Below, piece after piece: positions 34,192-48,754 of a stretch of DNA of 64,000 nt. Position 1 is the first letter of the stretch. Every line of letters starts with the position of its first letter. Where the stretch lies: assembly GCF_021919345.1 (NCBI RefSeq), contig NZ_CP089293.1, positions 4,030,001-4,094,000 on the forward strand, written 5' to 3'. The position numbers were made by a program, and so were the translations under genes. Below the pieces are notes generated by a model that worked only from the letters and a program-made list of their open reading frames with translations, was not told the origin of the DNA and ran no database searches. The stretch is from Paenarthrobacter nicotinovorans (GTDB taxonomy: Bacteria > Actinomycetota > Actinomycetes > Actinomycetales > Micrococcaceae).

Positions 34192-34941
34192 TTAGCGCCG
34201 GTCGAACGTCAGCCCGCCGGGTACCTGGAACGTCGGCATGAGTTCGAGCATGCCTACGTTGACGTGGCGGGGCGTTTCGATGGCGTAGTCCAGCGCATTG
34301 ACGATGTCGTCCGTGGTCAGCGACTCGTAGCCCTCGTAGTAGGTCTGCCAGGCTTCTTCCATGGCCTCGGGCGTGCCACCGAGGTTGCGGCCGAAGATCT
34401 CGGTCTCCACGCGGCCGGGGCAGATTTCGGTAACGCGGATGCGCTTGCCCACGGTGTCGTTCCGGAGCTGGCGGGAAATCTGGTGCACGGCGGCCTTGGT
34501 GGCGTGATAGACCGTGTGCCCGTAGAAGTTGTACAGACCAGCGATCGAGCTGATGTTGATGACATGGCCAAGATCGCGCTCCACCATGCCCGGCAGCACC
34601 AGCCGGGTGAGCTGCAGCAGGCCGCGAAGGTTCACGTCCACGAGCTCGTCAATGTCTTCCTCGGAGGAATCCAGGATGTTGCCCGGTCGGGAAACACCGG
34701 CGCAGTTCACCAGGACATCCACCTTGAGGTCACCGACGACGGCGGCCAGCGCGGCCGTGTCGGTTAGGTCGACTACGTGCGGGATGGCTCCGGTGCGGTC
34801 GGCCAGTTCGGCGAGGCGTTCCTCGTTGCGGGCGACGGCGTGGACTGTCAGGCCGCGCTTGGCGAGGCGCTCCGCGATGGCGGCACCCATCCCGGTTGAC
34901 GCTCCGGTGACGAGGGCGGTGGTGTAGTCGGAAAAAGACAT
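34192..34941 (-). CDS. SDR-family dehydrogenase (YdfG-like) in the oxoprolinase operon
   Basis: 249 aa classical short-chain dehydrogenase: cofactor loop GASTGMG (13-19), NCAG, catalytic Ser in ISSIAG and YHATK. The C-terminal NVGMLELMPTFQVPGG segment resembles YdfG/serine-3-dehydrogenase enzymes that oxidise 3-hydroxy acids or hydroxy amino acids. The last gene of the pxpABC-MFS-SDR unit, 81 bp after the transporter. GGAGGAC 5 nt before ATG. It may handle a hydroxylated substrate of this pathway. Confidence 0.85.
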   Translation of the reverse strand: MSFSDYTTALVTGASTGMGAAIAERLAKRGLTVHAVARNEERLAELADRTGAIPHVVDLTDTAALAAVVGDLKVDVLVNCAGVSRPGNILDSSEEDIDELVDVNLRGLLQLTRLVLPGMVERDLGHVINISSIAGLYNFYGHTVYHATKAAVHQISRQLRNDTVGKRIRVTEICPGRVETEIFGRNLGGTPEAMEEAWQTYYEGYESLTTDDIVNALDYAIETPRHVNVGMLELMPTFQVPGGLTFDRR

Positions 34942-35022
34942 GGTGTCCTCCAGAAGGTGGGGAATCGGTGGGCCACTGTGCGCCGGACCGGTAAGGCCCG
35001 GCGCACAGCCGCTAGGTGGTGG

Positions 35023-36363
35023 CTAGGCGTCGCGGAGCGGTTCGTGGGCTCGGTCCTTGACCGTGCTGACCGCGATGAGCGTGCCGAGGGCGGTGATGAC
35101 TGCGTAGAAAGCAGGCATGTAGATGTTGCCGGTGCTGCCGATCAGCCAGGTCATGAGCAGCGGGGCAGTGCCGCCGAACAATGCCGAGGAGATGTTGTAG
35201 CCGAGACCGTAAGCCGAGTAGCGGACGCGGGTGGGGAACAGCTCGACGATCAGGATATGGATGACTGCGGTGTGCCCGGCGAAGACGATGGCCATGATGC
35301 AGGCGCCGAGGATGGCCAGGCCCATTTCGCCGGTGGCGATGAGGGCGTAGGACGGAATGCCGAGGACAGCCATGGCGATCGCGGAACCAGCGATGACTTT
35401 CTTGCGGCCAATGCGGTCGGACAAGGCGCCCACGAACGGGATGGCGATGCAGATGACCACCAGGCTGCAGGCGGTGACGAGGAGTGCCTCACCGATGGTG
35501 AAGTTCAGCTGCTTGCCCTTGAGGAACGTCGGCATGTAGGAGAAGAGAACGTAGTAGCCGGAGCCGTTCATCAGCGGGATGAAGAGGGCCAGGAGCATGG
35601 CACGGCGGTGTTCTTTGGACTGGAAGGCTTCCTTGAGGGGGTTCTTGGAGAGGCCGCCCTCTTCCTTGAGCTTCTCGAAGTTCGGGGTGTCGCTGATGGC
35701 CTTGCGGATGTACCAACCGATGATGCCCATGGGGATGGCGACCAGGAACGGGATGCGCCAGGCGAACGCACCGAAGCCGCCGCCGTCGATCGCTGCCTGG
35801 GTGAGCCACGGCGACATGGAGTAGGCCACCAAAGTACCGGTGAGCAGCGCTGCGAAAGAGGCAATCTGCGCGTAGGAAGTGATGACGCCGCGCTTGCCTT
35901 CAGGGGCGTGTTCAGCGAGGAACGTCATGGCGCCGGCAGCTTCGCCACCAACGGAGAAGCCCTGCAGGAGCCGCAGGAGAACCAGCAGGATGGGAGCTGC
36001 AACACCGATTGCTGCGTAAGGGGGAAGCAGGCCGATACCGGCGGTGGCGACGCTGATCAGGAGGATGACAAAGACCAGTAGTTTCTGCCTGCCGATCCGG
36101 TCGCCAAGGTAGCCGCAGACCACTGCGCCGAGGGGACGGACAAAGAAGGAGACCGCGTACCCGGCGAAAACGAAGAGCAGGGCGTTGTCCGGGTTGCCGG
36201 GCGCCAGGAAGACCAGGGCCAGAGTCCCTGCCATGAAGGCGAAAATGCCGTTGTCGTACAGTTCCACGAAGATGCCAACGCACCCTGCGGTGACAACCTT
36301 GCGGGTTTGGCGGCCCGTGAGCCGCTCATGCTGCACTGGAGCAGCATTGGTGCTTGCGGTCAT
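35023..36363 (-). CDS. MFS transporter, metabolite:H+ symporter type
   Basis: 446 aa, 12 hydrophobic helices. MHS-family (ProP/KgtP/ShiA-like) signatures: FVRPLGAVVCGYLGDRIGRQ between helices 2 and 3, LQGFSVGGEAAGA, and ELFPTRVRYSAYGLGYN. This family carries organic acids and betaines. Located between pxpC and the SDR, it is the likely importer of the substrate used by the oxoprolinase. AAGGA before ATG. Confidence 0.88.
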   Translation of the reverse strand: MTASTNAAPVQHERLTGRQTRKVVTAGCVGIFVELYDNGIFAFMAGTLALVFLAPGNPDNALLFVFAGYAVSFFVRPLGAVVCGYLGDRIGRQKLLVFVILLISVATAGIGLLPPYAAIGVAAPILLVLLRLLQGFSVGGEAAGAMTFLAEHAPEGKRGVITSYAQIASFAALLTGTLVAYSMSPWLTQAAIDGGGFGAFAWRIPFLVAIPMGIIGWYIRKAISDTPNFEKLKEEGGLSKNPLKEAFQSKEHRRAMLLALFIPLMNGSGYYVLFSYMPTFLKGKQLNFTIGEALLVTACSLVVICIAIPFVGALSDRIGRKKVIAGSAIAMAVLGIPSYALIATGEMGLAILGACIMAIVFAGHTAVIHILIVELFPTRVRYSAYGLGYNISSALFGGTAPLLMTWLIGSTGNIYMPAFYAVITALGTLIAVSTVKDRAHEPLRDA

Positions 36364-36417
36364 GACTTTTCCTTACTGGGATGAGCGTAGCAACGCCTAC
36401 TGGTTGACGACAGGGTT

Positions 36418-37431
36418 TTAGCTGCATGCCGCAACTGGTAGGTCCTGCCACTGGGGACGGCATCCAATGCCGAGGAGTCCGAAGACGGTGTGGACGGATT
36501 CGCGGAGGGTCTCAAGCTGAGCCCGCGAGCGCCTGTGGGCGGCAGTTGCTTCTGCCACTGTGGTTTTCCGAAAACGGACTTTGTCCCCTGGCCTCGCTTG
36601 GGCCAGGACATCCAGTCCGGTGCTGGTAACCACTGCAAGGACGGGATATCCGGCGGTGACGCCGCGTCCCCGGTGCAGTACCAGCAGCTCTTCCCTTGAG
36701 GGAACCTCGACGGCGCCCACTGGCACGCCGCGGGAAAGGACCTCACCGCTTGAGGTTCTTTCCGGAAGTTCTCCGCCAAGCCGCAGGCCTATGTGGTTGC
36801 TGCGGCCGCTGACGGCGTACTCGGAGGTGAAGAGCAGTTCACCGGATTCGCCGAACTCGGCGACGTCCGGCCCGTCGGTCACGTCGACCAACAAGTCTGA
36901 ACCCATGCCCGGCCTTTCGAGGCCGAGCCGGAAAAGGGGAAGGTCGAAGTACGGCTGACGTACAGGTGTCACGCTCCGACGGGTGACGAGCGCGGTTCCT
37001 TCCTTGAGCTGGCGTCCGAAGCCCACGACGGTGTCCGGGGCGGCGCTACCAAGCAATGTCTCGGCCTCAATGGAGCCGTGGACGGCCAGGTAGGCACGGA
37101 GTCCGCGGTGGATCCCGCGGATGGACACGGATTCGCCCGCACGCACCGAAACGGGTTCCCACTGGTTGCATGCTCGTCCGCCGACGGTCAGGGTAAGGGG
37201 TGCGCCGGTCACAGCGATCAGGACATCTGTGTTCGCGGTCATCCGAAAGTCGAGGGCCGTGATCTCCACCAGGGGATCGTTGTCAGGATTTCCGGCCAGG
37301 ATATTGGCGGCGCGCGCTGAATACTGGTCGAGGGCGCCGTTCACGGGAAGTCCGAAGCGGGGGCCCCGGGTCCTGCCGAGGTCCGTCACCACGGAGTTTC
37401 CCGGCTGCTGGATCAGGATCCGGCCGCTCAT
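36418..37431 (-). CDS. pxpC: 5-oxoprolinase subunit C (biotin-dependent carboxyltransferase family)
   Basis: 337 aa, KipA/PxpC family: VVTDLGRTRGPRFGLPVNGALD at the N-terminus, then the carboxyltransferase-like fold (ALDFRMTANTDVLIAVTG, GFGRQLKEG). With PxpA and PxpB it forms ATP-dependent 5-oxoprolinase that opens pyroglutamate to glutamate. Start ATG overlaps the pxpB stop (ATGA); a longer reading frame upstream is only the antisense-like extension through pxpB. All three subunits are consecutive. Confidence 0.9.
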   Translation of the reverse strand: MSGRILIQQPGNSVVTDLGRTRGPRFGLPVNGALDQYSARAANILAGNPDNDPLVEITALDFRMTANTDVLIAVTGAPLTLTVGGRACNQWEPVSVRAGESVSIRGIHRGLRAYLAVHGSIEAETLLGSAAPDTVVGFGRQLKEGTALVTRRSVTPVRQPYFDLPLFRLGLERPGMGSDLLVDVTDGPDVAEFGESGELLFTSEYAVSGRSNHIGLRLGGELPERTSSGEVLSRGVPVGAVEVPSREELLVLHRGRGVTAGYPVLAVVTSTGLDVLAQARPGDKVRFRKTTVAEATAAHRRSRAQLETLRESVHTVFGLLGIGCRPQWQDLPVAACS

Positions 37432-38165
37432 GGCAGGCGTTCCAATTCCAGCGGTTCCAACTCCCGGCCAACGAAGTCGTTGAAGTCTTCGCTGCCGATC
37501 TGCCGAAACCGCAAAATGTCGCCGGGCTTGTACGGGACCAACGGTTCCTTGCGGATGTTCAGCACGGAAAGCGGTGTCTGGCCAATCACGCACCAGCCAC
37601 CCGGAGCAGCGGCCGGAGCGATGACTGCCTGGCGTCCGGCAACGGACACCGCACCTGCCGGGACGCTGAGCCGGGGATCCTTCAACCGGGGTACAGGCCT
37701 GGGGAACGCGGGACCGTCCATCATGGGAGAACCTGCGGGAGCGCCCAGGCATCGTACGGTGTAGGTCTTTTCAGTGTGGAGCCGAATGACTTCTCCGGTT
37801 GAAATGCCTTGATGCTCCGCAACGAGTTCCAGGTCCGGACCGAAGTCGCCACCGTAGACCACGGGGACATCGAATTCACGGGGCGCCTGCGCTCCCTCGG
37901 CTGCATGGCCCAGCTCCAGCAGCCCCAGCTTGACGAAGGCGCGCACTTGGCGGGCCGAAACCAGGATGGGATCGAATTCCACCAGGACGGAGTCGTAGGT
38001 GGGAACGGCACCGTAGAGACCTTCGGCGCCGCAGCTTTCCAGCCAGTCGGCCAAGCGGTGAACTGTGAGCCAGTTGTCTTCGTTTGCTTGCGAGATGGCC
38101 ACGACACGCAGTGCGGAGTCACCTGACTCGTAAATCTCGGTGGGGGCCACTGTCAGGACGGTCAT
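37428..38165 (-). CDS. pxpB: 5-oxoprolinase subunit B (KipI/allophanate hydrolase family)
   Basis: 245 aa. Family motifs: SGDSALRVV near the N-terminus, PTYDSVLVEFDP, the VPVVYGGDFGPDLE segment and GGWCVIGQTP near the C-terminus. Partner of PxpC and PxpA. ATG 38165 lies 1 nt after the pxpA stop; a start 19 codons upstream would lie in pxpA. Confidence 0.9.
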   Translation of the reverse strand: MTVLTVAPTEIYESGDSALRVVAISQANEDNWLTVHRLADWLESCGAEGLYGAVPTYDSVLVEFDPILVSARQVRAFVKLGLLELGHAAEGAQAPREFDVPVVYGGDFGPDLELVAEHQGISTGEVIRLHTEKTYTVRCLGAPAGSPMMDGPAFPRPVPRLKDPRLSVPAGAVSVAGRQAVIAPAAAPGGWCVIGQTPLSVLNIRKEPLVPYKPGDILRFRQIGSEDFNDFVGRELEPLELERLP

Positions 38166-38166
38166 G

Positions 38167-38955
38167 TCAGGCCGCCTTCTTCCTGGCATCCATGACCTCG
38201 GCCAGCGGGGCGATGCGAACACCGGCGGAGATGAGCTCGGAACGGATCAGGCGGGCCAGTCCGACAGCGCCGGGGTTGTCCCCGTGGAGGAGGACTGTGT
38301 CGACGTCGATATCCATGTCAGCGCCGTTGGCGCAGCGGATCTTGCCGTCAACCACCATGCGGAGTGTCCGCTCCACGATGTCGGCGGGATCATGCAGCAC
38401 AGCACCGGGTTGGCTCCGGGGAACCAGTGTCCCGTCTTCCTGGTAGGCGCGGTCAACGATGCCGACAATTGCCACGTCCAGCCCGGCGGCGCGTGCAGCC
38501 ACAGCCAGTTCGCCTTCCTGGGCCACCACCACGAGTTCGTTGTCCACGCGGGCCGCTGCCTCGGCCACGGCCCGGGCGTAATCGGCCCGGACGGCAACGA
38601 GGTTGCCGAGCCGGCCGTGGGGTGCCAAGTGCGTGACCTTGGTGCCGTGGAATGCGGCGAAGCCATTCAGCGCGCCCACTTGGTACACGACGTCGTTCTG
38701 AACTTCACCGGCCGAAAGGCCCATGTCGCGCCGACCGAAACCCCGCAGGTCCGGGAAACCCGGATGGGCCCCGATTCCAACTCCACGTCGCACGCATTCG
38801 CCAACAGTAGCGGCCATAATGTCCGGATCGCCGGCATGGAACCCGCATGCGATATTGGCGCTTGAGACGATCTCAAGGAGTTCGGAATCGTCGCCAATGG
38901 TGTAGGCGCCAAATCCCTCTCCGAGATCCGCTACAAGATCAATTATCGGGTTCAC
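38167..38955 (-). CDS. pxpA: 5-oxoprolinase subunit A (LamB/YcsF family)
   Basis: 262 aa. The LamB/YcsF N-terminus DLVADLGEGFGAY, followed by SSANIACGFHAGDP, IGAHPGFPDLRGFGRR and THLAPHGRL, carries the family's conserved Asp/His residues. First gene of the pxpABC-MFS-SDR operon. GTG 38955 is chosen since the product then begins VNPIIDLVADLGEG as in homologues; the ribosome-binding site (AGAG) is weak. A LysR-type regulator is divergent, and the bipartite element at 39081-39121 lies upstream. Confidence 0.9.
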   Translation of the reverse strand: MNPIIDLVADLGEGFGAYTIGDDSELLEIVSSANIACGFHAGDPDIMAATVGECVRRGVGIGAHPGFPDLRGFGRRDMGLSAGEVQNDVVYQVGALNGFAAFHGTKVTHLAPHGRLGNLVAVRADYARAVAEAAARVDNELVVVAQEGELAVAARAAGLDVAIVGIVDRAYQEDGTLVPRSQPGAVLHDPADIVERTLRMVVDGKIRCANGADMDIDVDTVLLHGDNPGAVGLARLIRSELISAGVRIAPLAEVMDARKKAA

Positions 38956-39080
38956 GTGGTTCTCTTTTCGTGGTTTTGCCGTGGAATTGAATTCCAAGGA
39001 AACGGCGGGTGATTTCAGGATTCCCCTCCGTTGCCGGATGTTCTTTCCAAAAGTCTCGCACCGGTCAACCACGCGGCACA

Positions 39081-39121
39081 AAGACCTAATAGTTATCCCG
39101 TAATAGCTCTCCGTTATGACC
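39081..39121. promoter_or_regulatory. Bipartite element, copy 1 (pxp/lysR intergenic)
   Basis: AAGACCTAAT (39081-39090), 23 nt, TTATGACC (39114-39121). The same two words with exactly 23 nt between them occur at 42736-42776 upstream of the aminotransferase-aldolase operon. Position, 126 bp before pxpA and next to lysR, fits a LysR binding region. Confidence 0.65.
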
Positions 39122-39219
39122 TGCACCACCCTGTACTGTGGCTTGGGTCCCACCGGCCCCGGATAGAATTTCCCTAACGCAAGCCACCCGGGGACGTGGC
39201 CCTCGAGGAAGGCAGACCA

Positions 39220-40164
39220 ATGGATACGCGCAAGCTCTCATACTTCGTGCAGATCGTTGACTCCGGCAGCATTACCAAGGCTGCTGCGGCGCTCCACGTG
39301 GCACAGCCCGCCCTGAGCCAACAGGTATCGGCACTGGAAAACGACCTCAAGCAGCGCCTCCTGATCCGCAGCAAACAAGGCGTTGAGCCCACCGCGGCGG
39401 GACACACCCTCTACCGGCACGCGCAGTCGATCCTCCGGCTGGTGGAGCAGGCCCGGCAGGACGTCGCCACCTCCGGCGCCGCACCCTCCGGCCGGGTCTC
39501 CATAGCGATTGCGCCCTACAGCATGGCCTCCAGCCTGACGCCGCAGATCATCAGCGAAGTCAGCCGGCGCTATCCGGATATCGTGGTGCACCTGACGGAG
39601 ATTTTTGGCGGGGTATTGAGCGAAGCCATCAAGAACGGCCGCCTGGACATGGCACTCATCTACGAGCCCGGAAAGATCCGCGGAGTGCAATTCACCACCA
39701 TGATCGTGGAAGACCTGCACTTGGTGGTCCATCCGGACCTGGACGTGAACCACGGCGAGGATACGGTCACGCTTGCGGAAGCCAGCAAGGTGGGACTCTT
39801 CCTTCCGGAGAAGAACCACACCCTCCGTCAGATCATCGAGAAGGGCCTCGCCGAACAGGACCTGCCCCTCAAGCTGGTGGGCGAAGTCGAGTCGGTACCG
39901 TCACTGACCCGCCTGATCCGGGCCAACCTGGGTGGCACTGTGTTGCCCAAGTCGGCCGCCGACGCCCTCTTCCCGGACCAGGACTTCAAGGTGCTGCGGA
40001 TCGTCGAACCCGGGCTGCAGAGCAAGATCGCCCTCTGCACTCCCGACCACGAGCCGCTTTCCGAGGCAGCCTCAGCCGTGCTCATGGTGGTCAAGGAAAT
40101 GCTGCACCAGCAACTGATCAGGAAGTACGGAACCGACCCCGTGCAACTGCCGGCCCATCCATAA
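39220..40164 (+). CDS. LysR-family regulator (Nac/Cbl-like)
   Basis: 314 aa. The winged helix (SGSITKAAAALHVAQPALSQQVSALE, about 15-40) and LLIRSKQGVEPTAAG are close to the Nac/CynR branch. The effector domain follows. ATG 39220 has GAGGAAGG 8 nt upstream; GTG 39196 would include that site. Divergent from pxpA, so it is the likely activator of 5-oxoproline use, and the shared element suggests that it also controls the operon at 40.7-42.7 kb. Confidence 0.9.
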   Translation: MDTRKLSYFVQIVDSGSITKAAAALHVAQPALSQQVSALENDLKQRLLIRSKQGVEPTAAGHTLYRHAQSILRLVEQARQDVATSGAAPSGRVSIAIAPYSMASSLTPQIISEVSRRYPDIVVHLTEIFGGVLSEAIKNGRLDMALIYEPGKIRGVQFTTMIVEDLHLVVHPDLDVNHGEDTVTLAEASKVGLFLPEKNHTLRQIIEKGLAEQDLPLKLVGEVESVPSLTRLIRANLGGTVLPKSAADALFPDQDFKVLRIVEPGLQSKIALCTPDHEPLSEAASAVLMVVKEMLHQQLIRKYGTDPVQLPAHP

Positions 40165-40191
40165 CAAAGCCTTATCCGGACAGACGGCTTT

Positions 40192-40207
40192 GGTCTTATT
40201 CAAGACC
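40192..40207. promoter_or_regulatory. Inverted AAGACC half-sites
   Basis: GGTCTT-ATTC-AAGACC is a perfect inverted repeat of the AAGACC word found in the two bipartite elements. It lies between lysR and the small gene at 40289. Confidence 0.35.
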
Positions 40208-40288
40208 GTTTTAATTTCCTAATATCGAATCAGCAAGGAATTCGAAAACAGCTCACGGACACCGCGGGCACGTTCAAAGGAAAAAACG

Positions 40289-40510
40289 GTGAAAAAGATC
40301 AGCACGACCGGATGGGTTTCGAATCCAACCCGTGGAACGATCAGCGCACGAACCGGATTCCACTGCCCGCGGAATGGTTTTTGGCGTCCCATCGGTGGCA
40401 TCGGTGAACCACTGTTTGTCTTCGAAGGCAGCCTGATGCCCGCACACTCCGGAAACAGCATCGAGTGGCACCTGGTGGATACCCGCCCCGGCCACTCCGG
40501 TCTCGACTGA
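40289..40510 (+). CDS. Small hypothetical protein (short W/P/G-rich domain)
   Basis: 73 aa, GTG start with AAAGGA 8 nt upstream and a terminator 90 bp downstream, so it looks like a real gene. The core TGFHCPRNGFWRPIG...FVFEGSLMPAH...IEWHLV resembles very short YjzC-type proteins of unknown function (loose resemblance from memory). Lies between the regulator and the aldolase operon, but on the opposite strand from the latter. Confidence 0.55.
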   Translation: MKKISTTGWVSNPTRGTISARTGFHCPRNGFWRPIGGIGEPLFVFEGSLMPAHSGNSIEWHLVDTRPGHSGLD

Positions 40511-40599
40511 GCGGCGGCCGCAGGGGCAGCCGCCGGACCCGGCCACCCGCCGTCGTACTTCCACCGCCGCTGCACCGGACCGCTTAACTCGACCGCACC

Positions 40600-40632
40600 A
40601 AGGCGCCCTGCCCCCGGCAAGGGCGCCTTTTT
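40600..40632 (+). terminator. Terminator of the small gene
   Basis: AAGGCGCCC and GGGCGCCTT arms with a 12-nt loop, followed by TTT on the plus strand. Confidence 0.8.
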
Positions 40633-40705
40633 CATGCCCGCGGCCCTGATCGTGCCACAAACCAGACTTGCCGCAAACCGCTCGTGCCGTAAACAGGCAC
40701 ACCAA

Positions 40706-40744
40706 AGGGCCGGCCGCAACGCCACAGACGCGCGACCGGCCCCT
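40706..40744 (-). terminator. Terminator of the aminotransferase-aldolase operon
   Basis: AAGGGGCCGGTCGC pairs with GCGGCCGGCCCTTT on the minus strand (one G-T/G-C imperfection), just after the aldolase stop. Confidence 0.65.
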
Positions 40745-40754
40745 TCGCCGAAGA

Positions 40755-41429
40755 TCAGTCCTCTACCAGGAGGCCCTTCTCCTTGAGCTTCTCCGTCAGT
40801 CCGCAGAGCTCAATGGTGTTGCCGCCGTCATGGTAGAGCTTGATGAGTTCGCGCTCGTGGTCATCGCGTGCTTGGGACAGCGCAATGACTTCCTCGGCCT
40901 CTTCGCGGCGGACCACCACAACGCCGTCAGCGTCGCCGCGGAGGATGTCGCCCGGGTAGATGATTTCGTCGCCGAAGACGATGGGGTGGTTGATCGGGCC
41001 GAGGGTTTCCTTGACGGTGCCCTTGATACTGACGCTGCCGGAGAACACGGGAAGGCCGAGTTCAATCAAGTCCTGGGTATCCCGCACGCCGGAATCAGTG
41101 ACCATGGCAGCGATCCCCTTGGCTTTCATCGCGTTGCCCAGGACATCGCCGAACGTGCCGGCCTCGGCCATTTCCTGCGCGCCGACCAGGACCACATCGC
41201 CGGCCTGGGCATAGTGGATGGCGACCTGGAGCATGAGGTTGTCCTGTGGTGCGCAGGCGACAGTGACGGCCGGGCCGCAGAAGGACATGGAACGGTCGAT
41301 CGGCTTGATCCTGGAGCTCAGCGCGCCGCGGCGGCCCTGTGCTTCGTGGATGGTGGCAGAGGAAAACTTGGCGAGGCGGCTGACGACATCGGCGTCGGGG
41401 CGCTCGAACTTGGTCTTGACGTGGATCAT
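40755..41429 (-). CDS. RraA-family aldolase (HMG/CHA aldolase type)
   Basis: 224 aa. Family core: SSATIHEAQGRRGAL, AQAGDVVLVGAQEMAEAGTFGDVL, and the catalytic VTDSGVRDTQDL (Arg and Asp of the metal/pyruvate site). Related enzymes cleave 4-hydroxy-4-methyl-2-oxoglutarate or 4-carboxy-4-hydroxy-2-oxoadipate to pyruvate plus a second oxoacid. Oxaloacetate decarboxylase activity is a common side reaction. ATG 41429 is 13 bp after the aminotransferase stop, so the pair is an operon. Confidence 0.85.
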   Translation of the reverse strand: MIHVKTKFERPDADVVSRLAKFSSATIHEAQGRRGALSSRIKPIDRSMSFCGPAVTVACAPQDNLMLQVAIHYAQAGDVVLVGAQEMAEAGTFGDVLGNAMKAKGIAAMVTDSGVRDTQDLIELGLPVFSGSVSIKGTVKETLGPINHPIVFGDEIIYPGDILRGDADGVVVVRREEAEEVIALSQARDDHERELIKLYHDGGNTIELCGLTEKLKEKGLLVED

Positions 41430-41442
41430 TGTCTGGATCTTT

Positions 41443-42651
41443 CTAGTTGAGGGCGTTGACGGCATCGCGGATCGAGTCCACACCGGCGTTGATGGTCTCC
41501 AGCGAGGTGGCGAAGGAGATCCGGAAGTAAGGGCCCAAGCCGTAGGCCGAACCCTGGATGACGGCCACGCGTGCGGCGTCCAACAGGTAGAGCGTGAAGT
41601 CCTGGTCGTTCCCGATGACCTTGCCGTCGGGCGCGGTTTTGCCGATTACGCCTGAGCAGTTCACGTACGCGTAGAAGGCGCCTTCGGCCGGCGCAACGGA
41701 CAGGCCGTTGATGGCGTTGAGGCCCTCGACGGCGGCGTCCCGGCGTTTGCGGTAGACCTCCACCGAGTCACCGACGAAGGACTGGTCACCGTTCAGCGCC
41801 GCGACTGCTGCGGCCTGGCTGATGGACGACGGGCACGACGACGTCTGCGACTGCAGTTTGTTCATGGCCGCAATCAGGGGTACTGGACCCACTCCGTAGC
41901 CGAGCCGCCAACCGGTCATGGCATAGGCCTTGGAAACTCCGTTGACCAACAGGACGCGGTCTTTGAGCGCCGGGACGGCTGTGACCAGGCTGGTCACGCG
42001 GCCGTCGCCGAAGTGGACTTCGTCGTAGATCTCGTCGGTGAGGATGAAGACGTGCGGATTCTTCCCGAGGACCTCCCCGAGCTCCTGCAGTTCCTCACGC
42101 GTGTAGACGGCCCCGGTCGGGTTGGACGGAGCGTTGAGGATGAGCCACTTGGTTTTGGGGGTGATGGCCGCCTCCAGTGCGGCCGGTGTGAGCTTGAAGC
42201 CCGTATCCTCGCCGCACGGGACAATCACCGGAGTGCCGTCATTGGCCAGGACCATGTCCGGGTAGGAAACCCAGTATGGCGCTGGGACGATCACTTCGTC
42301 GCCCTGGTTGAGCGATGCCATCAGTGCCACGTACAGGACCTGCTTCGCTCCGCCACCGATGGTGAGCTGCTTGGCGTCATAGCGATGTCCGGCGTCCCGC
42401 TCGATCTTGTTCAGGATGGCGGCCTGCAGCTCAGGGGTGCCAGTGACCGACGTGTACTTCGTCTCGCCGGCGTTGATTGCCTTGATGGCGGCGGCCTTGA
42501 TGTGGTCAGGGGTGTCGAAATCCGGCTCGCCGACCGTGAGGTCGATGATTTGGACGCCTTCGGCTTTCAGTTCGCGGACGCGGGCGGCAGCGGCGACGCT
42601 GGCTGAGGCCTTGATGCGGCTGACCCTCGACGCCGGCAGGAACTCGGACAT
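41443..42651 (-). CDS. Class I aminotransferase (aspartate aminotransferase-like)
   Basis: 402 aa. LTVGEPDFDTPDH near residue 40, NAPSNPTG (173-180), DEIYDEV, and Schiff-base lysine K241 in NGVSKAYAMTGWRLGYG: the Ib subgroup of aspartate/glutamate-type aminotransferases. GGAGGAG just before ATG. It precedes the RraA-family aldolase and has bipartite element copy 2 85 bp upstream, so it probably makes or removes the 2-oxoacid that the aldolase uses. Confidence 0.88.
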   Translation of the reverse strand: MSEFLPASRVSRIKASASVAAAARVRELKAEGVQIIDLTVGEPDFDTPDHIKAAAIKAINAGETKYTSVTGTPELQAAILNKIERDAGHRYDAKQLTIGGGAKQVLYVALMASLNQGDEVIVPAPYWVSYPDMVLANDGTPVIVPCGEDTGFKLTPAALEAAITPKTKWLILNAPSNPTGAVYTREELQELGEVLGKNPHVFILTDEIYDEVHFGDGRVTSLVTAVPALKDRVLLVNGVSKAYAMTGWRLGYGVGPVPLIAAMNKLQSQTSSCPSSISQAAAVAALNGDQSFVGDSVEVYRKRRDAAVEGLNAINGLSVAPAEGAFYAYVNCSGVIGKTAPDGKVIGNDQDFTLYLLDAARVAVIQGSAYGLGPYFRISFATSLETINAGVDSIRDAVNALN

Positions 42652-42735
42652 GTCTCCTCCAGGAATGTGGAACCCGGGACGCGCGGATTCGCGGATCCCT
42701 TTTTCGAGACTAAGGACTGAAAGGGGGCTCTGGAT

Positions 42736-42776
42736 AAGACCTAATGTGCGTGGATCTATAAGGGACTCTTATGACC
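42736..42776. promoter_or_regulatory. Bipartite element, copy 2 (upstream of the aminotransferase)
   Basis: AAGACCTAAT (42736-42745), 23 nt, TTATGACC (42769-42776), identical words and spacing to copy 1. It also contains the dyad ATAAG-GGACT-CTTAT (42758-42772). Confidence 0.65.
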
Positions 42777-42913: not shown

Positions 42914-43426
42914 ATGCCAGCCCATACCCGGTCAACCACAGCCCGGTACTCATACCGCGCCCGTGCCCCACGAACCGAGGCTCCGACTCACGTAGAACGC
43001 GCCAAACTCGTGCATGCACTGGCCCTGCACCGGCAACTCCTGAGCCATGCTTCCAGCGCTATCCGTAACCTCACCGCCGCCAGGAACGAGTTGATTGCGC
43101 AAGCCATGGAAGACGGGTTGGGGTTCGCGACCATTTCCGCAGCGACTGGCGAGAATCTCCGCACCGTCCGAACCATCGCTTTGGCTTATGACGATCTCCA
43201 TCCGAGCGGACTTCCCCGGCAAGCCCAGTTGGCTGCGTTGAAGACCAAAAGCCGTGAGCTTCGTGCGGCCGAGAGGCACCGCGAACAGATCACGGAGCGG
43301 CGGGAAGCCCTGATTGTGATGGCACTCCGAAACCACGTGTGTGATGATCTGGAACTCGCGTCACTGACGGGGCTCACTCCGGACCATATCCGCCGGGCAA
43401 CCCGGGGAATCGCACGCCCGGCCTAG
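42914..43426 (+). CDS. Hypothetical helical, HTH-like protein
   Basis: 170 aa, very rich in Ala/Arg/Leu helices, no membrane segment. Two segments look like helix-turn-helix units (GLGFATISAATGENLRTVRT and LASLTGLTPDHIRRATRG), so it is probably a DNA-binding protein. GAAAGG 8 nt before ATG. It is divergent from the aminotransferase operon but its role is unknown. Confidence 0.6.
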   Translation: MPAHTRSTTARYSYRARAPRTEAPTHVERAKLVHALALHRQLLSHASSAIRNLTAARNELIAQAMEDGLGFATISAATGENLRTVRTIALAYDDLHPSGLPRQAQLAALKTKSRELRAAERHREQITERREALIVMALRNHVCDDLELASLTGLTPDHIRRATRGIARPA

Positions 43427-44389: not shown

Positions 44390-45193
44390 TCAGTAGCTGT
44401 CGCGCTCCGCCGCTTCGGGCACGGGGATGAACGTCTTGGCAAACCTCTCCGACTCGCGGGCCAGCACCGCCACATCGGCACCGACAAGCACAAAGGAGGC
44501 ACCGGCGTCGAGATAGGCACGGGCGGTATCAGGGTTGAAGGCGTTCACACCGGCAGGCTTGCCGGCCGCTTTAGCGGCTTCCAGGCAATGCTCGACGACG
44601 GCCCTCACCAAGGGATTCTCCTGCTGTCCCAGCAGGCCCATGGACGCGGCGAGGTCCGAGGGGCCGAGGAAGATGCCATCCACGCCGTCGACGGCCAGGA
44701 TCTCCTCCACGGCCGAGGCCGCAGCCTCGGATTCGATCTGGACCGTGAGGCTGATGGACTCGGAAGCAGCAGCCAGGTAGTCCGGGACACGGTTCCACCG
44801 TGAAGCCCGGGCCAGTGCCGAGCCAACCCCGCGAACACCATGCGGCGGGTACCGTACAGCAGCAACCGCAGAGGCTGCCTCAAACGCAGAGTTCACCATG
44901 GGGATCAGCAGGTTCTGCACGCCGAGGTCCAGGTACTGCTTGATGACCACGGTGTCATTGACCGGGGGCCGGACCATGGCCTGCACGCGGTAACCGCTGA
45001 CGGCGTGGAGCTGGGCAAGGATCGATTCGAGGCCGTTGGGACTGTGCTCCGCGTCGATCAACACCCAGTCCAGACCTGAACCGGCACAGATTTCCGCCAC
45101 CAGCGGGCTACCGGAGCAGACCCACATCCCGGCCAATGGACGCCCAACCTCGGAGAGGGCCGAATAGAAGGTGGGGCTCAGCTGAAGTGACAT
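44390..45193 (-). CDS. hpaI: HpcH/HpaI aldolase (2,4-dihydroxyhept-2-ene-1,7-dioate aldolase)
   Basis: 267 aa class II pyruvate aldolase: CSGSPLVAEICAGSGLDWVLIDAEHSPN, MVRPP, VQIESEAAA and GIFLGPSDLAASMG (metal-binding Glu and Asp). Last step of homoprotocatechuate meta-cleavage, giving pyruvate and succinate semialdehyde. Start overlaps the hpaH end by 16 bp with GGAG inside hpaH. Last gene of the operon. Confidence 0.92.
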   Translation of the reverse strand: MSLQLSPTFYSALSEVGRPLAGMWVCSGSPLVAEICAGSGLDWVLIDAEHSPNGLESILAQLHAVSGYRVQAMVRPPVNDTVVIKQYLDLGVQNLLIPMVNSAFEAASAVAAVRYPPHGVRGVGSALARASRWNRVPDYLAAASESISLTVQIESEAAASAVEEILAVDGVDGIFLGPSDLAASMGLLGQQENPLVRAVVEHCLEAAKAAGKPAGVNAFNPDTARAYLDAGASFVLVGADVAVLARESERFAKTFIPVPEAAERDSY

Positions 45194-45963
45194 GTCACGA
45201 CTCCCAACGGTCCGTAATCCGCGTGCACGGTATCACCTTTGTACACCCACAGGGGGCGGGTAAACGAGCCCGCCAGGATGATATCTCCGGCCTTCATCGA
45301 ATCCCCGTGCGCGGCGATCTTGTTGGCCAGCCAGTGCACTCCATTGGCCGGGTGGTCGAGCACGCCGGCCGCGACTCCGGTCTCCTCGACGGTCTGGTTC
45401 TTGTACAGGATCGCGGACACCCAGCGGAGGTCGACGGCGTCAGGCCGCACCGGTCGTCCACCCACCACCATGGCCCCCATCGCGGCGTTGTCCGAGATGG
45501 TGTCCACGATGGTCCGGCCCTCCATTTCGATCCTGGAGTCCAGGATTTCGAGGGCCGGAACCACGTAGTCAGTCGCGTTGAGCACGTCGAAAATAGTGCA
45601 GCCGGGCCCCTTGAGGCCGGACTTCAGCACGAAGGCCAGCTCCACCTCAACTCGTGGATGGGTGTACTTGTCCCACTCCACGGAACAGCCGGTCTCCAGG
45701 ACCATGTCATCGAAAATGGCGCCGTAGTCGGGCTCGGTGATGCCGGTGGCAGCTTGCATGGCTTTGGACGTGAGGCCGATCTTGCGCCCCACCAACGTGC
45801 GTCCGGCTTCCTCGTTCCGCCGCATCCATAGCTGCTGCACGGCGTAGGAGTCCTCCACCGTCATGTCGGGGTAACGCGCGGTCAGGCGCGGGACCGGTTT
45901 ACGGTTCCGGCCGGCTTCGAGGAGCTCGTCGGCAATGGCTTCGATCGTCTTCGCGTCCAACAT
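45178..45963 (-). CDS. hpaH: 2-oxo-hept-4-ene-1,7-dioate hydratase
   Basis: 261 aa, MhpD/HpaH subgroup of the FAH superfamily: GRKIGLTSKAMQ, VEVELAFVLKSGL and LAGSFTRPLW at the C-terminus. Adds water before the aldolase step. ATG is 3 bp from the hpaD stop. Confidence 0.92.
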   Translation of the reverse strand: MLDAKTIEAIADELLEAGRNRKPVPRLTARYPDMTVEDSYAVQQLWMRRNEEAGRTLVGRKIGLTSKAMQAATGITEPDYGAIFDDMVLETGCSVEWDKYTHPRVEVELAFVLKSGLKGPGCTIFDVLNATDYVVPALEILDSRIEMEGRTIVDTISDNAAMGAMVVGGRPVRPDAVDLRWVSAILYKNQTVEETGVAAGVLDHPANGVHWLANKIAAHGDSMKAGDIILAGSFTRPLWVYKGDTVHADYGPLGVVTCHFS

Positions 45964-45966
45964 GGC

Positions 45967-47061
45967 CTAGACCTGGGCTCCCAGCTTGAAGCCCTCCGCC
46001 GTATCTGAAGCGCCCTCGGGCCGGGTGTAGGAGAAGCCGTCGGCGCCGACAGTGACGGCCATTTCGGACTTGTCCTCGCGCTCGATGATGGGCTGCGGGT
46101 TGCCATCGAGGTCCAGGACCAGGGAGGCCTCGGTGTACCAGGACGGGACCACGGGGTTGCCCCACCAGTCGCGGCGCTGGTTGTCGTGGACGTCCCAGGT
46201 GACGGTGGGGTTGTCGGGGTCGCCGGTGTAGTAGTCCTGCGTGTAGATCTCCACGCGGTGGCCGTCCGGGTCAAGGATGTAGAGGTAGAACGCGTTGGAC
46301 ACACCGTGGCGTCCGGGACCGCGTTCGATCCGGTCCGAGATGCGCAGGGCACCCATCTTGTCGCAGATCTGGATGATGTTGTGCTTCTCGTGCGTGGAGA
46401 ACGCGATGTGGTGCAGGCGGGGTCCGTTGCCCCCGGTCAGGGCGGTATCGTGCACGGTCTGCTTGCGGTGCATCCACGCGGCGTAAGTGACGCCGTCGGA
46501 ATCCTTGATGTCCTCGGAAACGCGGAAGCCGAGGTCCTCCAGGTACTTACGGCCGCGGGGAACGTCCGGGGTGACCTGGTTGAAGTGGTCCAGGCGGACC
46601 AGTTCCCCGGCGGAGTAGAGGTCGTAGCGCTGGGTGAGGCGTTCGACGTGCTCGACGTCGTAGAAGAACTCGTACGGGAAGCCCAGCGGATCCTCGACGC
46701 GGACGGAGTCGCCCACGCCCTTTGTGAAGCCCTCCTTGCGGCGCTCAACGCGGCAACCCAGCTCGCGGTAGTAGGCCTCGGCGGCGTCGACCTCGGCCGG
46801 GGACTTCACACGGTAGGCGAAGGCAGCAGCTGCGGCGACCGGGCCCTTGCGGAGGACCAGGTTGTGGTGGATGAACTCCTCGAAGGAGCGCAGGTAGATG
46901 GTGTTCTCGTCCTCTTCGGTGACGTGCAGGCCCAGCAGGTCCACGTAGAACGCGCGGGACTTCTCCAGGTCCGTGACTACGAGTTCCAGGTACGCGCAGC
47001 GGACGATATCCGGAGCCGGGACTGTGGGAGTGGGGATGGGGCCGGTGAATGGGTTGCTCAT
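45967..47061 (-). CDS. hpaD: 3,4-dihydroxyphenylacetate 2,3-dioxygenase (type I extradiol)
   Basis: 364 aa, two vicinal-oxygen-chelate modules. The metal ligands line up with the well-studied Arthrobacter/Brevibacterium enzymes at a constant offset of +4: H159 (VRLDHF), H218 (RLHHIAF) and E271 (HRVEIY), and the acid/base histidine H204 (QTVHDT). It opens the homoprotocatechuate ring with O2 using Fe or Mn. The conserved C-terminal lid is present. Third gene of the hpa operon, after a 104-bp gap with an inverted repeat. Confidence 0.95.
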   Translation of the reverse strand: MSNPFTGPIPTPTVPAPDIVRCAYLELVVTDLEKSRAFYVDLLGLHVTEEDENTIYLRSFEEFIHHNLVLRKGPVAAAAAFAYRVKSPAEVDAAEAYYRELGCRVERRKEGFTKGVGDSVRVEDPLGFPYEFFYDVEHVERLTQRYDLYSAGELVRLDHFNQVTPDVPRGRKYLEDLGFRVSEDIKDSDGVTYAAWMHRKQTVHDTALTGGNGPRLHHIAFSTHEKHNIIQICDKMGALRISDRIERGPGRHGVSNAFYLYILDPDGHRVEIYTQDYYTGDPDNPTVTWDVHDNQRRDWWGNPVVPSWYTEASLVLDLDGNPQPIIEREDKSEMAVTVGADGFSYTRPEGASDTAEGFKLGAQV

Positions 47062-47100
47062 GGGATTCTCTCTTCGTTGAAAGGGGTCATTTGGATGGAT

Positions 47101-47157
47101 TTTTTGTACAGGTGCGGCCCTTTAGAACGGGTTTTAGGGGCGTTATCTGTACAAAAA
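47101..47157. promoter_or_regulatory. Inverted repeat between hpaE and hpaD
   Basis: TTTTTGTACAG (47101-47111) and CTGTACAAAAA (47147-47157) are perfect 11-base arms 35 nt apart. It could be a pair of GntR-type half-sites or an RNA hairpin; the TGTACA core is part of each arm. Confidence 0.45.
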
Positions 47158-47165
47158 CTCCGAGT

Positions 47166-48677
47166 TTAGGCGCCGAATTTGGGTGTGTGGACCGAACCGA
47201 GGGTGATGTGCACGGCCTGCTGGTCGGTGTAGAAGTCGATGGAACGGTAGCCGCCTTCGTGGCCCAGGCCGGAGGCTTTGACGCCGCCGAACGGGGTGCG
47301 GAGGTCGCGGACGTTGTGGCTGTTGAGCCAGACCATGCCGGCTTCGACGTTCTGGGAGAAGTTGTGGGCCCGGGTCAGGTTCTGGGTCCAGATGTAGGCC
47401 GCCAGGCCGTACTTGGTGTTGTTCGCCAAGGCGAGGGCTTCGTCGTCGTTCTCGAAGGGCGTGATGGCCACGACGGGACCGAAGATTTCCTCCTGGAAGA
47501 TCCGCGCGTCAGGCGCGACGTCGGCAAACACCGTGGGTGCGATGTAGTTGCCTTCAGGCAGGTGGTCGGGCCTGCCGCCACCGGCCAGGAGCCGGCCTTC
47601 GGACTTGCCGATCTCCACGTACGATGCCACCTTGTCGTAGTGCTCCGGGTGGACGAGTGCGCCGACCTGGGTCTTGGGATCGTGGGGATCGCCCACCACG
47701 ATGTTCTTGGCCCGGGCTGCGTATTTTTCGCAGAATTCGTCGTAGATGGCGCGCTCAACCAGGATGCGGGAGCCGGCGGTGCAGCGTTCTCCGTTGAGGG
47801 AGAACACCCCGAACAGTGCCGAGTCGATCGCAGCGTCCAGGTCGGCGTCGGCGAACACGACGCACGGGGACTTGCCGCCGAGTTCCATGGACAGGCCTTT
47901 GAGGTTGGCGGCTGCGTTGCGGAAGATCGTCTGGCCCGTGGTGGTCTCGCCGGTGAAGGAAATCAGCGGCACGTCCGGGTGCTTCACCAGTGCATCGCCG
48001 GCTTCCTCGCCCAGGCCGTTCACCAGGTTGAACACGCCGTCGGGCAGGCCGGCGTCCTTGAAAATCTGCGCCCACAGCGACGCAGAGAGCGGCGTGAACT
48101 CGGCAGGCTTGAGGACCACGGTGTTGCCCGTTGCCAAAGCCGGGGCGAGCTTCCAGGACTCCAGCATGAACGGCGTGTTCCACGGCGTGATGAGCCCTGC
48201 GACGCCGATCGGCTTGCGGTTCACGTAGTTGATCTGCGAGCCCGGAACCTTCATGGCGTCGTCGAACTGGGCCACGATCAGGTCCGCGAAGAAGCGGAAG
48301 TTCTCGGCAGCCCGGAGCGCTTGGCCCTTTGCCTGGGTGATCGGCAGGCCGGTATCGAACGTCTCCAGCTCGGCGAGTCGTGCTTCCTGCGCTTCAACGG
48401 CGTCGGCGATCTTGTTCAGGACGCGGGCACGTTCGCGCGGCTTCATCTTCGGCCACGGGCCGTTCTTGAAGGCTTCGCGGGCGGCTGCCACGGCGAGGTC
48501 GATGTCTTCCTTCTGGCCGGCAGCGGCGGTGGCGTAATTGCCGTTGGAGACCGGATCCAGGACGTCGAAGGTCTTACCGGACACGGAGTCAACGAACTCG
48601 CCGTTGATGAAGTGCTGGATATGGGTGGGCAGGTTTTCGGGAATGTAATGCTTGTTGGTTTCTACCGAGGTCGTCAT
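47166..48677 (-). CDS. hpaE: 5-carboxymethyl-2-hydroxymuconate semialdehyde dehydrogenase
   Basis: 503 aa aldehyde dehydrogenase: cofactor region TPWNTPFMLES, catalytic Glu in MELGGKSP and catalytic Cys in NGERCTAGSR. Oxidises the ring-opened semialdehyde. ATG 48677 has AAAGGAAG upstream; an ATG 11 codons earlier lies in the hairpin leader. Position between gntR and hpaD is consistent. Confidence 0.93.
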   Translation of the reverse strand: MTTSVETNKHYIPENLPTHIQHFINGEFVDSVSGKTFDVLDPVSNGNYATAAAGQKEDIDLAVAAAREAFKNGPWPKMKPRERARVLNKIADAVEAQEARLAELETFDTGLPITQAKGQALRAAENFRFFADLIVAQFDDAMKVPGSQINYVNRKPIGVAGLITPWNTPFMLESWKLAPALATGNTVVLKPAEFTPLSASLWAQIFKDAGLPDGVFNLVNGLGEEAGDALVKHPDVPLISFTGETTTGQTIFRNAAANLKGLSMELGGKSPCVVFADADLDAAIDSALFGVFSLNGERCTAGSRILVERAIYDEFCEKYAARAKNIVVGDPHDPKTQVGALVHPEHYDKVASYVEIGKSEGRLLAGGGRPDHLPEGNYIAPTVFADVAPDARIFQEEIFGPVVAITPFENDDEALALANNTKYGLAAYIWTQNLTRAHNFSQNVEAGMVWLNSHNVRDLRTPFGGVKASGLGHEGGYRSIDFYTDQQAVHITLGSVHTPKFGA

Positions 48678-48701
48678 CGTTGTCTTCCTTTTCTTCCAAC
48701 G

Positions 48702-48754
48702 CGGGGTCACTTATGGCCCATTCGAGGTGGGTTTATGGGCCATAAGTGACCCCG
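48702..48754 (-). terminator. Long hairpin between gntR and hpaE
   Basis: Perfect 20-base arms (CGGGGTCACTTATGGCCCAT and its complement) with a 13-nt loop, but no T-run after it on the minus strand. It may attenuate read-through from gntR or stabilise the hpaE mRNA. Confidence 0.6.

What the first reader, a model, noticed from the sequence alone, without database searches (positions are those of the whole stretch)
34192..42776. A LysR-linked regulon joining 5-oxoprolinase, an aminotransferase and an RraA-type aldolase
Seen: pxpA-pxpB-pxpC-MFS-SDR and an aminotransferase-RraA pair flank one LysR gene, and both leftward operons carry AAGACCTAAT-N23-TTATGACC upstream. Known: PxpABC opens 5-oxoproline to glutamate; RraA-family HMG/CHA aldolases cleave 4-hydroxy-4-substituted 2-oxoglutarates to pyruvate plus an oxoacid. 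Inference: together they could open a hydroxylated or methylated pyroglutamate, transaminate the resulting 4-substituted glutamate and cleave it, a route I know of no description for. Plain pyroglutamate would not need the aldolase.
Basis: partly seen in the sequence, partly recalled or inferred. Interest (0 to 1): 0.82.

Follow-up and report, generated by a model that had tools for sequence, protein, structure and literature searches.

The report
Conserved regulon degrading a glutamate-like lactam
A soil bacterium and its relatives carry a set of genes, apparently switched on together, that looks like a hitherto undescribed route for eating a modified form of pyroglutamate, a ring-shaped relative of the amino acid glutamate; the exact food molecule is still a guess.

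Summary
The 41-base element occurs exactly twice in the 4.48-Mb genome. Its core lies before the aminotransferase in 63 of 63 and before pxpA in 59 of 60 testable related loci; a similar palindrome lies between SDR and lysR of five rhizobial clusters. In 101 genomes of the genus, aldolase, this PxpA type and aminotransferase share the same 49 and, at the thresholds used, miss the same 52. The genome has two other PxpA genes with the canonical VKPHGxLYN motif; the window PxpA and every cluster-linked relative read lack its lysine and tyrosine. The aldolase keeps every catalytic residue checked but forms a clade apart from protocatechuate/gallate enzymes. Best reading: a dedicated pathway for a lactam other than plain 5-oxoproline, most likely a 4-hydroxy(-4-substituted) pyroglutamate. 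Substrate and SDR step are inferred. The listings of ten paper searches showed no description.

The parts
34192..34941 (-). SDR oxidoreductase, last gene of the pxp operon
   Evidence: Pfam PF00106; nearest solved sequence 3asu, an SDR; a homologue found in 51 of 68 loci, one of them (L026) only 29% identical; several loci end before it
35023..36363 (-). MFS transporter, metabolite:H+ symporter type; replaced or joined by ABC or TRAP transporters in relatives
   Evidence: TIGR00883 336.3 bits, cut-off 443.45 not met
36418..37431 (-). pxpC-like (CT_A_B domain)
   Evidence: PF02626; PxpC equivalog NF045499 142.7 bits, cut-off 500 not met; start
37428..38165 (-). pxpB-like (CT_C_D domain)
   Evidence: PF02682; TIGR00370 122.7 bits, cut-off 145.55 not met; start
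38167..38955 (-). pxpA-like (LamB/YcsF) with LAPHGRLGN in place of VKPHGxLYN
   Evidence: PF03746; motif
39081..39121 (-). putative LysR operator of the pxp operon (and perhaps of lysR): GGTCATAACGGAGAGCTATTACGGGATAACTATTAGGTCTT
39220..40164 (+). LysR-type regulator, NAC-like
   Evidence: NF008410 304.9 bits, cut-off 309 not met; start
40158..40197 (+). third, weaker copy of the operator (3 mismatches), upstream of the small gene
   Evidence: a copy within 3 mismatches in 44 of 60 loci
40289..40510 (+). 73-residue conserved protein of unknown family (TGxHCPxNGxW...FVFEGSxMP)
   Evidence: within 4.5 kb of 51 of 51 aldolase copies in 101 genomes; differences at codon positions 1/2/3 of 0.27/0.23/0.48 over 60 loci; no Pfam or NCBIfam match
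40755..41429 (-). RraA-family class II pyruvate aldolase, HMG/CHA type
   Evidence: NF006731 226.5 bits, cut-off 179 met; catalytic residues kept; separate clade
41443..42651 (-). class I aminotransferase, aspartate-transaminase family
   Evidence: NF004769 703.3 bits, cut-off 617 met; nearest solved 6f77 and 6f35, named aspartate aminotransferase A and B
42736..42776 (-). putative LysR operator of the aminotransferase-aldolase operon: GGTCATAAGAGTCCCTTATAGATCCACGCACATTAGGTCTT

Best explanation
A NAC-like LysR regulator controls, from one conserved operator, two main operons and a small gene that together form one catabolic pathway for an imported amino-acid lactam. Steps: (1) uptake by the MFS symporter (other taxa use ABC or TRAP systems); (2) ATP-driven ring opening by a specialised PxpABC whose PxpA motif has changed (K to A, Y to G); (3) transamination of the resulting acidic amino acid by the aspartate-transaminase-type enzyme; (4) metal-dependent cleavage of the 4-hydroxy-2-oxo acid by the RraA-type aldolase to pyruvate plus a second 2-oxo acid. 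The substrate class that best fits step 4 is a 4-hydroxy(-4-substituted) 5-oxoproline. Plain 4-hydroxy-5-oxoproline would give pyruvate and glyoxylate; the 4-hydroxy-4-methyl form would give two pyruvates. Shown: co-location, co-occurrence, a shared conserved operator-like site, family and catalytic residues, divergence from canonical PxpA. Inferred: operator occupancy, every reaction, the substrate. Not placed: the SDR (perhaps reducing the released oxo acid or acting on the hydroxyl group first) and the 73-residue protein.
For: Operator exact only at the two operons in 4.48 Mb and conserved in 63/63 and 59/60 loci. The same 49 of 101 genomes hold aldolase, this PxpA type and aminotransferase, the other 52 none at the thresholds used (lists compared), while all 101 have some PxpA-family protein. 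The set recurs in Leifsonia (no lysR found in that locus), Labrenzia, Rhizobium, Sinorhizobium, Phyllobacterium, Paracoccus, Agrobacterium and Bradyrhizobium, with a CATAA-N7-TTAT site between SDR and lysR in five Rhizobiales loci. Own genome has two further PxpA-family genes, one with a PF02626 neighbour and, by my reading of the translations, GntR, MFS and biotin-carboxylase genes. PxpA motif change in every cluster-linked sequence read. The aldolase keeps the residues equivalent to Arg40, Asn71, Asp102, Arg123, Asp124, Lys147, Arg195 and Glu199 of the P. putida enzyme. The rhizobial binding protein is of amino-acid type (PF00497).
Against: No substrate, expression or binding data. PxpB, PxpC and NAC models score below their curated cut-offs. 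The SDR has no place in the scheme. Aldolases of this type also decarboxylate oxaloacetate (PMC5065237), so the aldolase step need not be an aldol cleavage. One cluster (Bradyrhizobium guangzhouense, L096) has a far more distant RraA protein lacking several of the residues, and one Neorhizobium plasmid holds its aldolase about 200 kb from the pxp genes. Rhizobia add biotin carboxylase genes that the Arthrobacter cluster lacks. In the Rhizobiaceae and Phyllobacterium loci no such site was found before accB, pxpA or rraA where tested, except a different ATA-N9-TAT match before rraA in L097. The third site, before the small gene, is weak (44 of 60 within 3 mismatches). The PxpA motif change has not been tied to substrate binding by any structure.
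Confidence: 0.42

Rival explanations
1. The substrate is a different cyclic amide or ureide (not a 4-hydroxylated pyroglutamate); the ring-opened product is an acidic amino acid that is transaminated, and the RraA enzyme cleaves or decarboxylates the oxo acid. The SDR may act first, on a hydroxyl group.
For: The PxpC-like protein also matches the urea carboxylase model TIGR02712 (107 bits, far under its cut-off) and rhizobial clusters carry biotin carboxylase and biotin-carrier genes; hydantoinase/oxoprolinase genes lie near the Bradyrhizobium 62B cluster; SDR present in most clusters; PxpA motif changed differently in rhizobia (mostly SFHAAMGN) and actinobacteria (APHGRLGN).
Against: PxpABC and HMG/CHA-aldolase kinship together point first to a C5 dicarboxylic skeleton; I recognised no ureide or hydantoin gene among the open reading frames printed for five Arthrobacter-type loci, judged by eye from their first 60 residues, which is a weak check.
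Confidence: 0.3
2. Ordinary 5-oxoproline use: PxpABC gives glutamate, the transaminase moves its amino group onto oxaloacetate or pyruvate, and the RraA enzyme works as oxaloacetate decarboxylase, feeding pyruvate.
For: The aminotransferase passes the aspartate-transaminase model; HMG/CHA aldolases decarboxylate oxaloacetate (PMC5065237); C. glutamicum grows on 5-oxoproline with pxpTABC (PMC13274462).
Against: In C. glutamicum the reported requirement is transporter plus PxpABC (PMC13274462, abstract, introduction and discussion read); the genome already has a PxpA of canonical motif beside what I read as a GntR gene; loss of the canonical lysine and tyrosine; strict co-occurrence of the aldolase.
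Confidence: 0.18
3. The aminotransferase-aldolase pair belongs to aromatic breakdown (4-hydroxyphenylacetate or protocatechuate/gallate) and only neighbours the pxp operon.
For: An hpa-like operon lies next door at 44390-48710 (best match HpaI, 304.2 bits, under the cut-off of 368.8).
Against: The hpa genes adjoin only in a subset of loci while the pxp genes stay in nearly all; the aldolase is outside the clade that holds the P. putida enzyme. Of the four plasmid members of that clade read, three sit beside 4-oxalomesaconate tautomerase and two of these also near protocatechuate 4,5-dioxygenase, the fourth (L106) near neither. Operator shared with pxp.
Confidence: 0.05

Closest known systems
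PxpABC prokaryotic 5-oxoprolinase (E. coli, B. subtilis; C. glutamicum pxpTABC with GntR-type PxpR, PMC13274462)
   Same: Three subunits with the same Pfam domains in one operon with a transporter
   Different: LysR instead of GntR; aminotransferase, aldolase and SDR in the regulon; PxpA motif VKPHGxLYN replaced; PxpB and PxpC below equivalog cut-offs
HMG/CHA aldolase (LigK; P. putida F1 enzyme, PDB 3noj)
   Same: Fold family, all catalytic residues checked, including Asn71 and Lys147, proposed to bind the C5-carboxylate of CHA (PMC5065237)
   Different: Separate clade (UFBoot 100) linked to PxpA rather than to protocatechuate or gallate genes; Trp after Asn71 replaced by Ile, Leu or Met
Mammalian hydroxyproline breakdown (4-hydroxyglutamate transaminated by aspartate aminotransferase, then 4-hydroxy-2-oxoglutarate aldolase) - recalled
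   Same: Same proposed order: transamination of a 4-hydroxyglutamate, then cleavage to pyruvate and glyoxylate
   Different: Unrelated aldolase (recalled); entry here would be through a lactam opened with ATP
NAC (nitrogen assimilation control) LysR protein
   Same: Best NCBIfam match (304.9 bits); sites contain ATA-N9-TAT, the NAC consensus as I recall it
   Different: Just under the curated cut-off of 309; appears to be a local pathway regulator encoded in the cluster

Membership tests
PxpABC 5-oxoprolinase | LamB/YcsF (PxpA), CT_C_D (PxpB) and CT_A_B (PxpC) proteins together | tested here: met
PxpABC 5-oxoprolinase | Curated equivalog scores for PxpB and PxpC | tested here: not met
   122.7 vs 145.55 and 142.7 vs 500 bits. 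For PxpA two subfamily models are passed (317.7 vs 226 and 221.3 vs 213) and three equivalog models are not
PxpABC 5-oxoprolinase | Canonical PxpA motif VKPHGxLYN | tested here: not met
   LAPHGRLGN here; VKPHGxLYN in E. coli, both own paralogues and 119 of the best 120 E. coli-type hits; VKPHGxLY in 4 of 4 PDB chains, one of them E. coli PxpA itself
PxpABC 5-oxoprolinase | ATP-dependent opening of 5-oxoproline | not testable with these tools
   needs enzyme assay
HMG/CHA class II pyruvate aldolase | Arg123, Asp124, Asp102, Glu199, Asn71, Lys147 (P. putida numbering) | tested here: met
   roles of Arg123, Asp124, Glu199, Asn71, Lys147 from PMC5065237; that of Asp102 recalled
HMG/CHA class II pyruvate aldolase | Member of the LigK/PcmE equivalog of aromatic pathways | tested here: not met
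   201.3 vs 304.5 bits; separate clade
HMG/CHA class II pyruvate aldolase | Cleavage of HMG or CHA | not testable with these tools
   needs enzyme assay
Aspartate transaminase PRK06107 | Curated cut-off | tested here: met
   703.3 vs 617 bits
NAC regulator PRK11233 | Curated cut-off | tested here: not met
   304.9 vs 309 bits
LysR regulon | Common conserved operator-like site before the member operons | tested here: met
LysR regulon | Binding and regulation by this LysR | not testable with these tools
   needs EMSA and RNA-seq

The most novel reading that the evidence does not exclude
This is the first dedicated bacterial pathway for 4-hydroxylated or 4-hydroxy-4-alkylated pyroglutamates, spread through Actinomycetota and Alphaproteobacteria with exchangeable transporters, and its PxpABC founds a lactamase family distinct from 5-oxoprolinase.
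Probability: 0.38. Interest if true: 0.78.

Novelty: new variant of a known kind. Interest (0 to 1): 0.66.

Why it matters
[quoted passage not shown] The evidence suggests that all three labels may mislead. The cluster is in 49 of a 101-genome sample of the genus, and an aldolase at least 80% identical to the Sinorhizobium one is on 170 plasmid records, including pRL10 of Rhizobium 3841, so it probably serves a common soil or root compound to which it has not been assigned. It offers a ready test of what PxpABC paralogues do.

Tried and rejected
Aromatic pathway role for the aldolase: rejected by clade and by neighbours. Chance motif: rejected. A wider regulon in the genome: at up to 3 mismatches only one further site outside the cluster (contig 1, 4270216-4270255), and the reversed control also gave one, so not pursued. 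Fold of the 73-residue protein: model of modest confidence (pLDDT 73.9, pTM 0.60), no PDB match with E up to 0.001, led nowhere. Broader search of Actinomycetota: 8 of 396 genomes matched at E up to 1e-45, own genome included, the other seven at 39-44% identity, so the tight subfamily is rare outside the genus in that sample. Glyoxylate-reductase hint: Leifsonia L066 and a Streptomyces plasmid L103 have a D-2-hydroxyacid dehydrogenase beside or near aldolase and aminotransferase, but only the L103 protein leads with a glyoxylate-reductase model and neither passes its cut-off: weak support for glyoxylate as a product.

Literature: ten searches. I saw listings only in part where many papers matched (20 of 178, 20 of 895, 40 of 154, 8 of 10, 12 of 15, 10 of 12; all). 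None of the listed titles and abstract starts described this cluster or a bacterial route for 4-hydroxypyroglutamate; the library holds only open-licence papers. Papers: PMC13274462 abstract, introduction and discussion; PMC5065237 first part and passages; PMC7105596, PMC13117884 and PMC8482765 passages; PMC11951559 and PMC12016517 search listing only. PMC7105596 was opened for locus tag pRL100444, which is an unrelated gene (gmcA); I had guessed tags near the cluster and none proved to be of it.

Rows dropped before counts: from the RraA tree, five sequences with a stop in the extended reading (L011, L012, L035, L036, L071), the partial L070 and most near-identical Micrococcaceae; from the aminotransferase-site count, L024 and L025 (contig edge). 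L066, L067 and L070 were left out of the footprint counts and show no site of this exact pattern. The 68 loci were found by short peptide patterns and are no random sample; the 101 genomes were drawn evenly by the tool from the genus. The cross-phylum operator comparison has no shuffle control.
Full report
What is there. On the minus strand lies pxpA-pxpB-pxpC-MFS-SDR (38955 down to 34192). Divergent from it is a LysR gene (39220-40164 +). Beyond that, on the minus strand, is an aminotransferase-RraA pair (42651 down to 40755). The element AAGACCTAAT-N23-TTATGACC occurs exactly twice in the window and exactly twice in the 4.48-Mb genome, 125 bases before pxpA and 84 before the aminotransferase. 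Its left half alone would not be significant. Read along the operons both copies contain ATA-N9-TAT, which I recall as the consensus of NAC; the LysR protein's best curated match is NAC, 4 bits under the cut-off.

The element is real. A scan for relatives of the aldolase in one-genome-per-species contigs gave 68 loci. The six genes aminotransferase, pxpA, pxpB, pxpC, lysR and rraA were found at more than 40% identity in 61 of 68; of the seven others, five (L020, L024, L025, L035, L047) are short contigs or cut at the contig end, L066 (Leifsonia) lacks only a detected lysR, and L067 (Labrenzia) has pxpB, pxpC and lysR at or below about 40%. Among the 65 loci left after setting aside L066, L067 and L070, the core GTCATAA-N8-TAT-N14-TANGTCTT (up to 3 mismatches) lies upstream of the aminotransferase in 63 of 63 testable and of pxpA in 59 of 60, with an additional site near the lysR start in 39 of 62. 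Apart from these and the small-gene sites, only 2 hits fall in 1,236,981 bases. In five Rhizobiales loci (L074, L078, L094, L097, L108) a palindrome CATAA-N7-TTAT lies between SDR and lysR; similar sites precede the aminotransferase, accB and SDR in Bradyrhizobium L096 and lie between the TRAP genes and lysR in Labrenzia L067. The other upstream regions tested (accB, pxpA, rraA and others) had none or a different match. This cross-phylum likeness is short and was not tested against shuffles.

One functional unit. In 101 genomes of the genus drawn by the tool, the aldolase (E up to 1e-60) is in 49, the window-type PxpA (E up to 1e-85) in 49 and the aminotransferase (E up to 1e-120) in 49, always the same 49 (lists compared). 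Fisher's exact test for two of them gives 5e-30, which ignores kinship. All 101 have at least one PxpA-family protein. Of 51 aldolase copies, 48 have this PxpA within 10.3 kb on the same contig; the other three begin within 2 kb of a contig start.

Beyond the genus. Plasmids of Rhizobium, Sinorhizobium, Phyllobacterium, Paracoccus, Bradyrhizobium and Agrobacterium vitis carry pxpB, pxpC, pxpA, aminotransferase, LysR, SDR, a transporter and an aldolase together, mostly with biotin carboxylase and carrier genes. For A. vitis the gene table, which is incomplete, lists carriers but no carboxylase, and the two Bradyrhizobium clusters differ in order or content. The transporter varies: MFS; ABC annotated as spermidine/putrescine type, or ABC whose binding protein matches SBP_bac_8 (L026, L042); amino-acid ABC (binding protein PF00497); TRAP (DctP in L067). 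Of 11 records that I found by eye in both plasmid lists of 60 rows (of 242 and 180), 10 have aldolase and SDR within 8 kb; the exception (Variovorax) has only a 43% identical aldolase, far away. In Actinomycetota at large the tight aldolase subfamily is rare.

A third member. A site with 3 mismatches at 40158-40197 + precedes a 73-residue gene at 40289-40510 +. The gene lies 0.3-4.4 kb from each of the 51 aldolase copies of the 101-genome sample, evolves like coding sequence and has no Pfam or NCBIfam match. Relatives of it also occur unlinked (67 of 101 genomes hold at least one). Its site is weaker: within 3 mismatches in 44 of 60 loci. Whether rhizobial plasmids carry it was not tested.

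Not plain 5-oxoprolinase. The genome has two more PxpA-family genes. One stands in a set that I read, from the translations, as GntR, PxpA, MFS, fused PxpBC and a biotin-carboxylase protein (the PxpC part also by PF02626). Those two, E. coli PxpA, and 119 of the best 120 relatives of the E. coli protein (of 8000 scored) carry VKPHGxLYN; four solved structures carry VKPHGxLY. All of the best 120 relatives of the window PxpA (of 7948) carry an APHG..GN variant instead. The cluster-linked PxpAs of Paracoccus and Labrenzia have MNPHGALGN, that of Curtobacterium LCPHGKLGN, those of rhizobia mostly SFHAAMGN. So lysine is lost and tyrosine becomes glycine in every cluster-linked one read. In the PxpA tree, cluster-linked and canonical sequences separate with ultrafast bootstrap 86. 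That these positions touch the substrate is my inference.

Aldolase. It keeps all the catalytic residues tested, including Arg123, essential in P. putida, and Asn71 and Lys147, whose alanine variants lose over 1000-fold (PMC5065237, passages). Eighteen aldolases, 17 from pxp clusters and one from a plasmid whose pxp cluster lies about 200 kb away, form one clade (100), apart from a clade of three sequences from aromatic-pathway loci, the P. putida enzyme and one from another setting (100). The aldolase of Bradyrhizobium guangzhouense falls outside.

Mechanism. Ring opening, transamination, aldol cleavage is the simplest order. 4-Hydroxyglutamate and its cyclised form are real compounds: urinary 4-hydroxyglutamate is converted to 4-hydroxy-5-oxoproline during sample processing (PMC13117884, passages), and 4-hydroxypyroglutamate was formed from an ester product of an aldol-transamination cascade (PMC8482765, passages). 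A paper on parapyruvate, which I recall to be the 4-hydroxy-4-methyl oxo acid, appeared in a listing only (PMC11951559). Which compound soil bacteria meet is open. The SDR, closest by sequence to structures named SDR, clavulanic acid dehydrogenase and sulfoacetaldehyde reductase among others, has no assigned step.

Verdict. Observation confirmed and extended; interpretation supported as to co-regulation (by motif) and shared function, undecided as to substrate.

Noticed in passing
window 44390-48710 (-): Genes resembling 4-hydroxyphenylacetate breakdown (best match HpaI by NCBIfam, under its cut-off; the others by my reading of the sequence) adjoin the cluster in a subset of the related loci only.
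   Followed up: partly
window 49421-50947 (-): A protein with a fumarylacetoacetate-hydrolase domain fused to an RraA-like domain.
   Followed up: no
window 42914-43426 (+): A 170-residue protein divergent from the aminotransferase, with a relative at this place in most related loci and only a sub-threshold match to DUF6003.
   Followed up: no
L042 (record titled Sporosarcina beigongshangi): The complete cluster with 83% identical aldolase in a record named as a Bacillota species: recent transfer, or a mislabelled or mixed assembly.
   Followed up: no
L070 10689-11828 (+): In the Curtobacterium cluster an M24 metallopeptidase-family gene lies between the aldolase and the aminotransferase matches, a possible hint to a peptide-derived substrate.
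   Followed up: partly
L103 7995-11632 (Streptomyces plasmid): A different aldolase-aminotransferase-cyclase-D-glycerate dehydrogenase run of genes beside a LacI gene, with no pxp gene listed in the 16.6 kb shown.
   Followed up: partly
L087 (own genome C1:341000-355000): A third PxpA-family gene with adjacent CT_A_B pieces matching PF02626 in two separate stretches.
   Followed up: no
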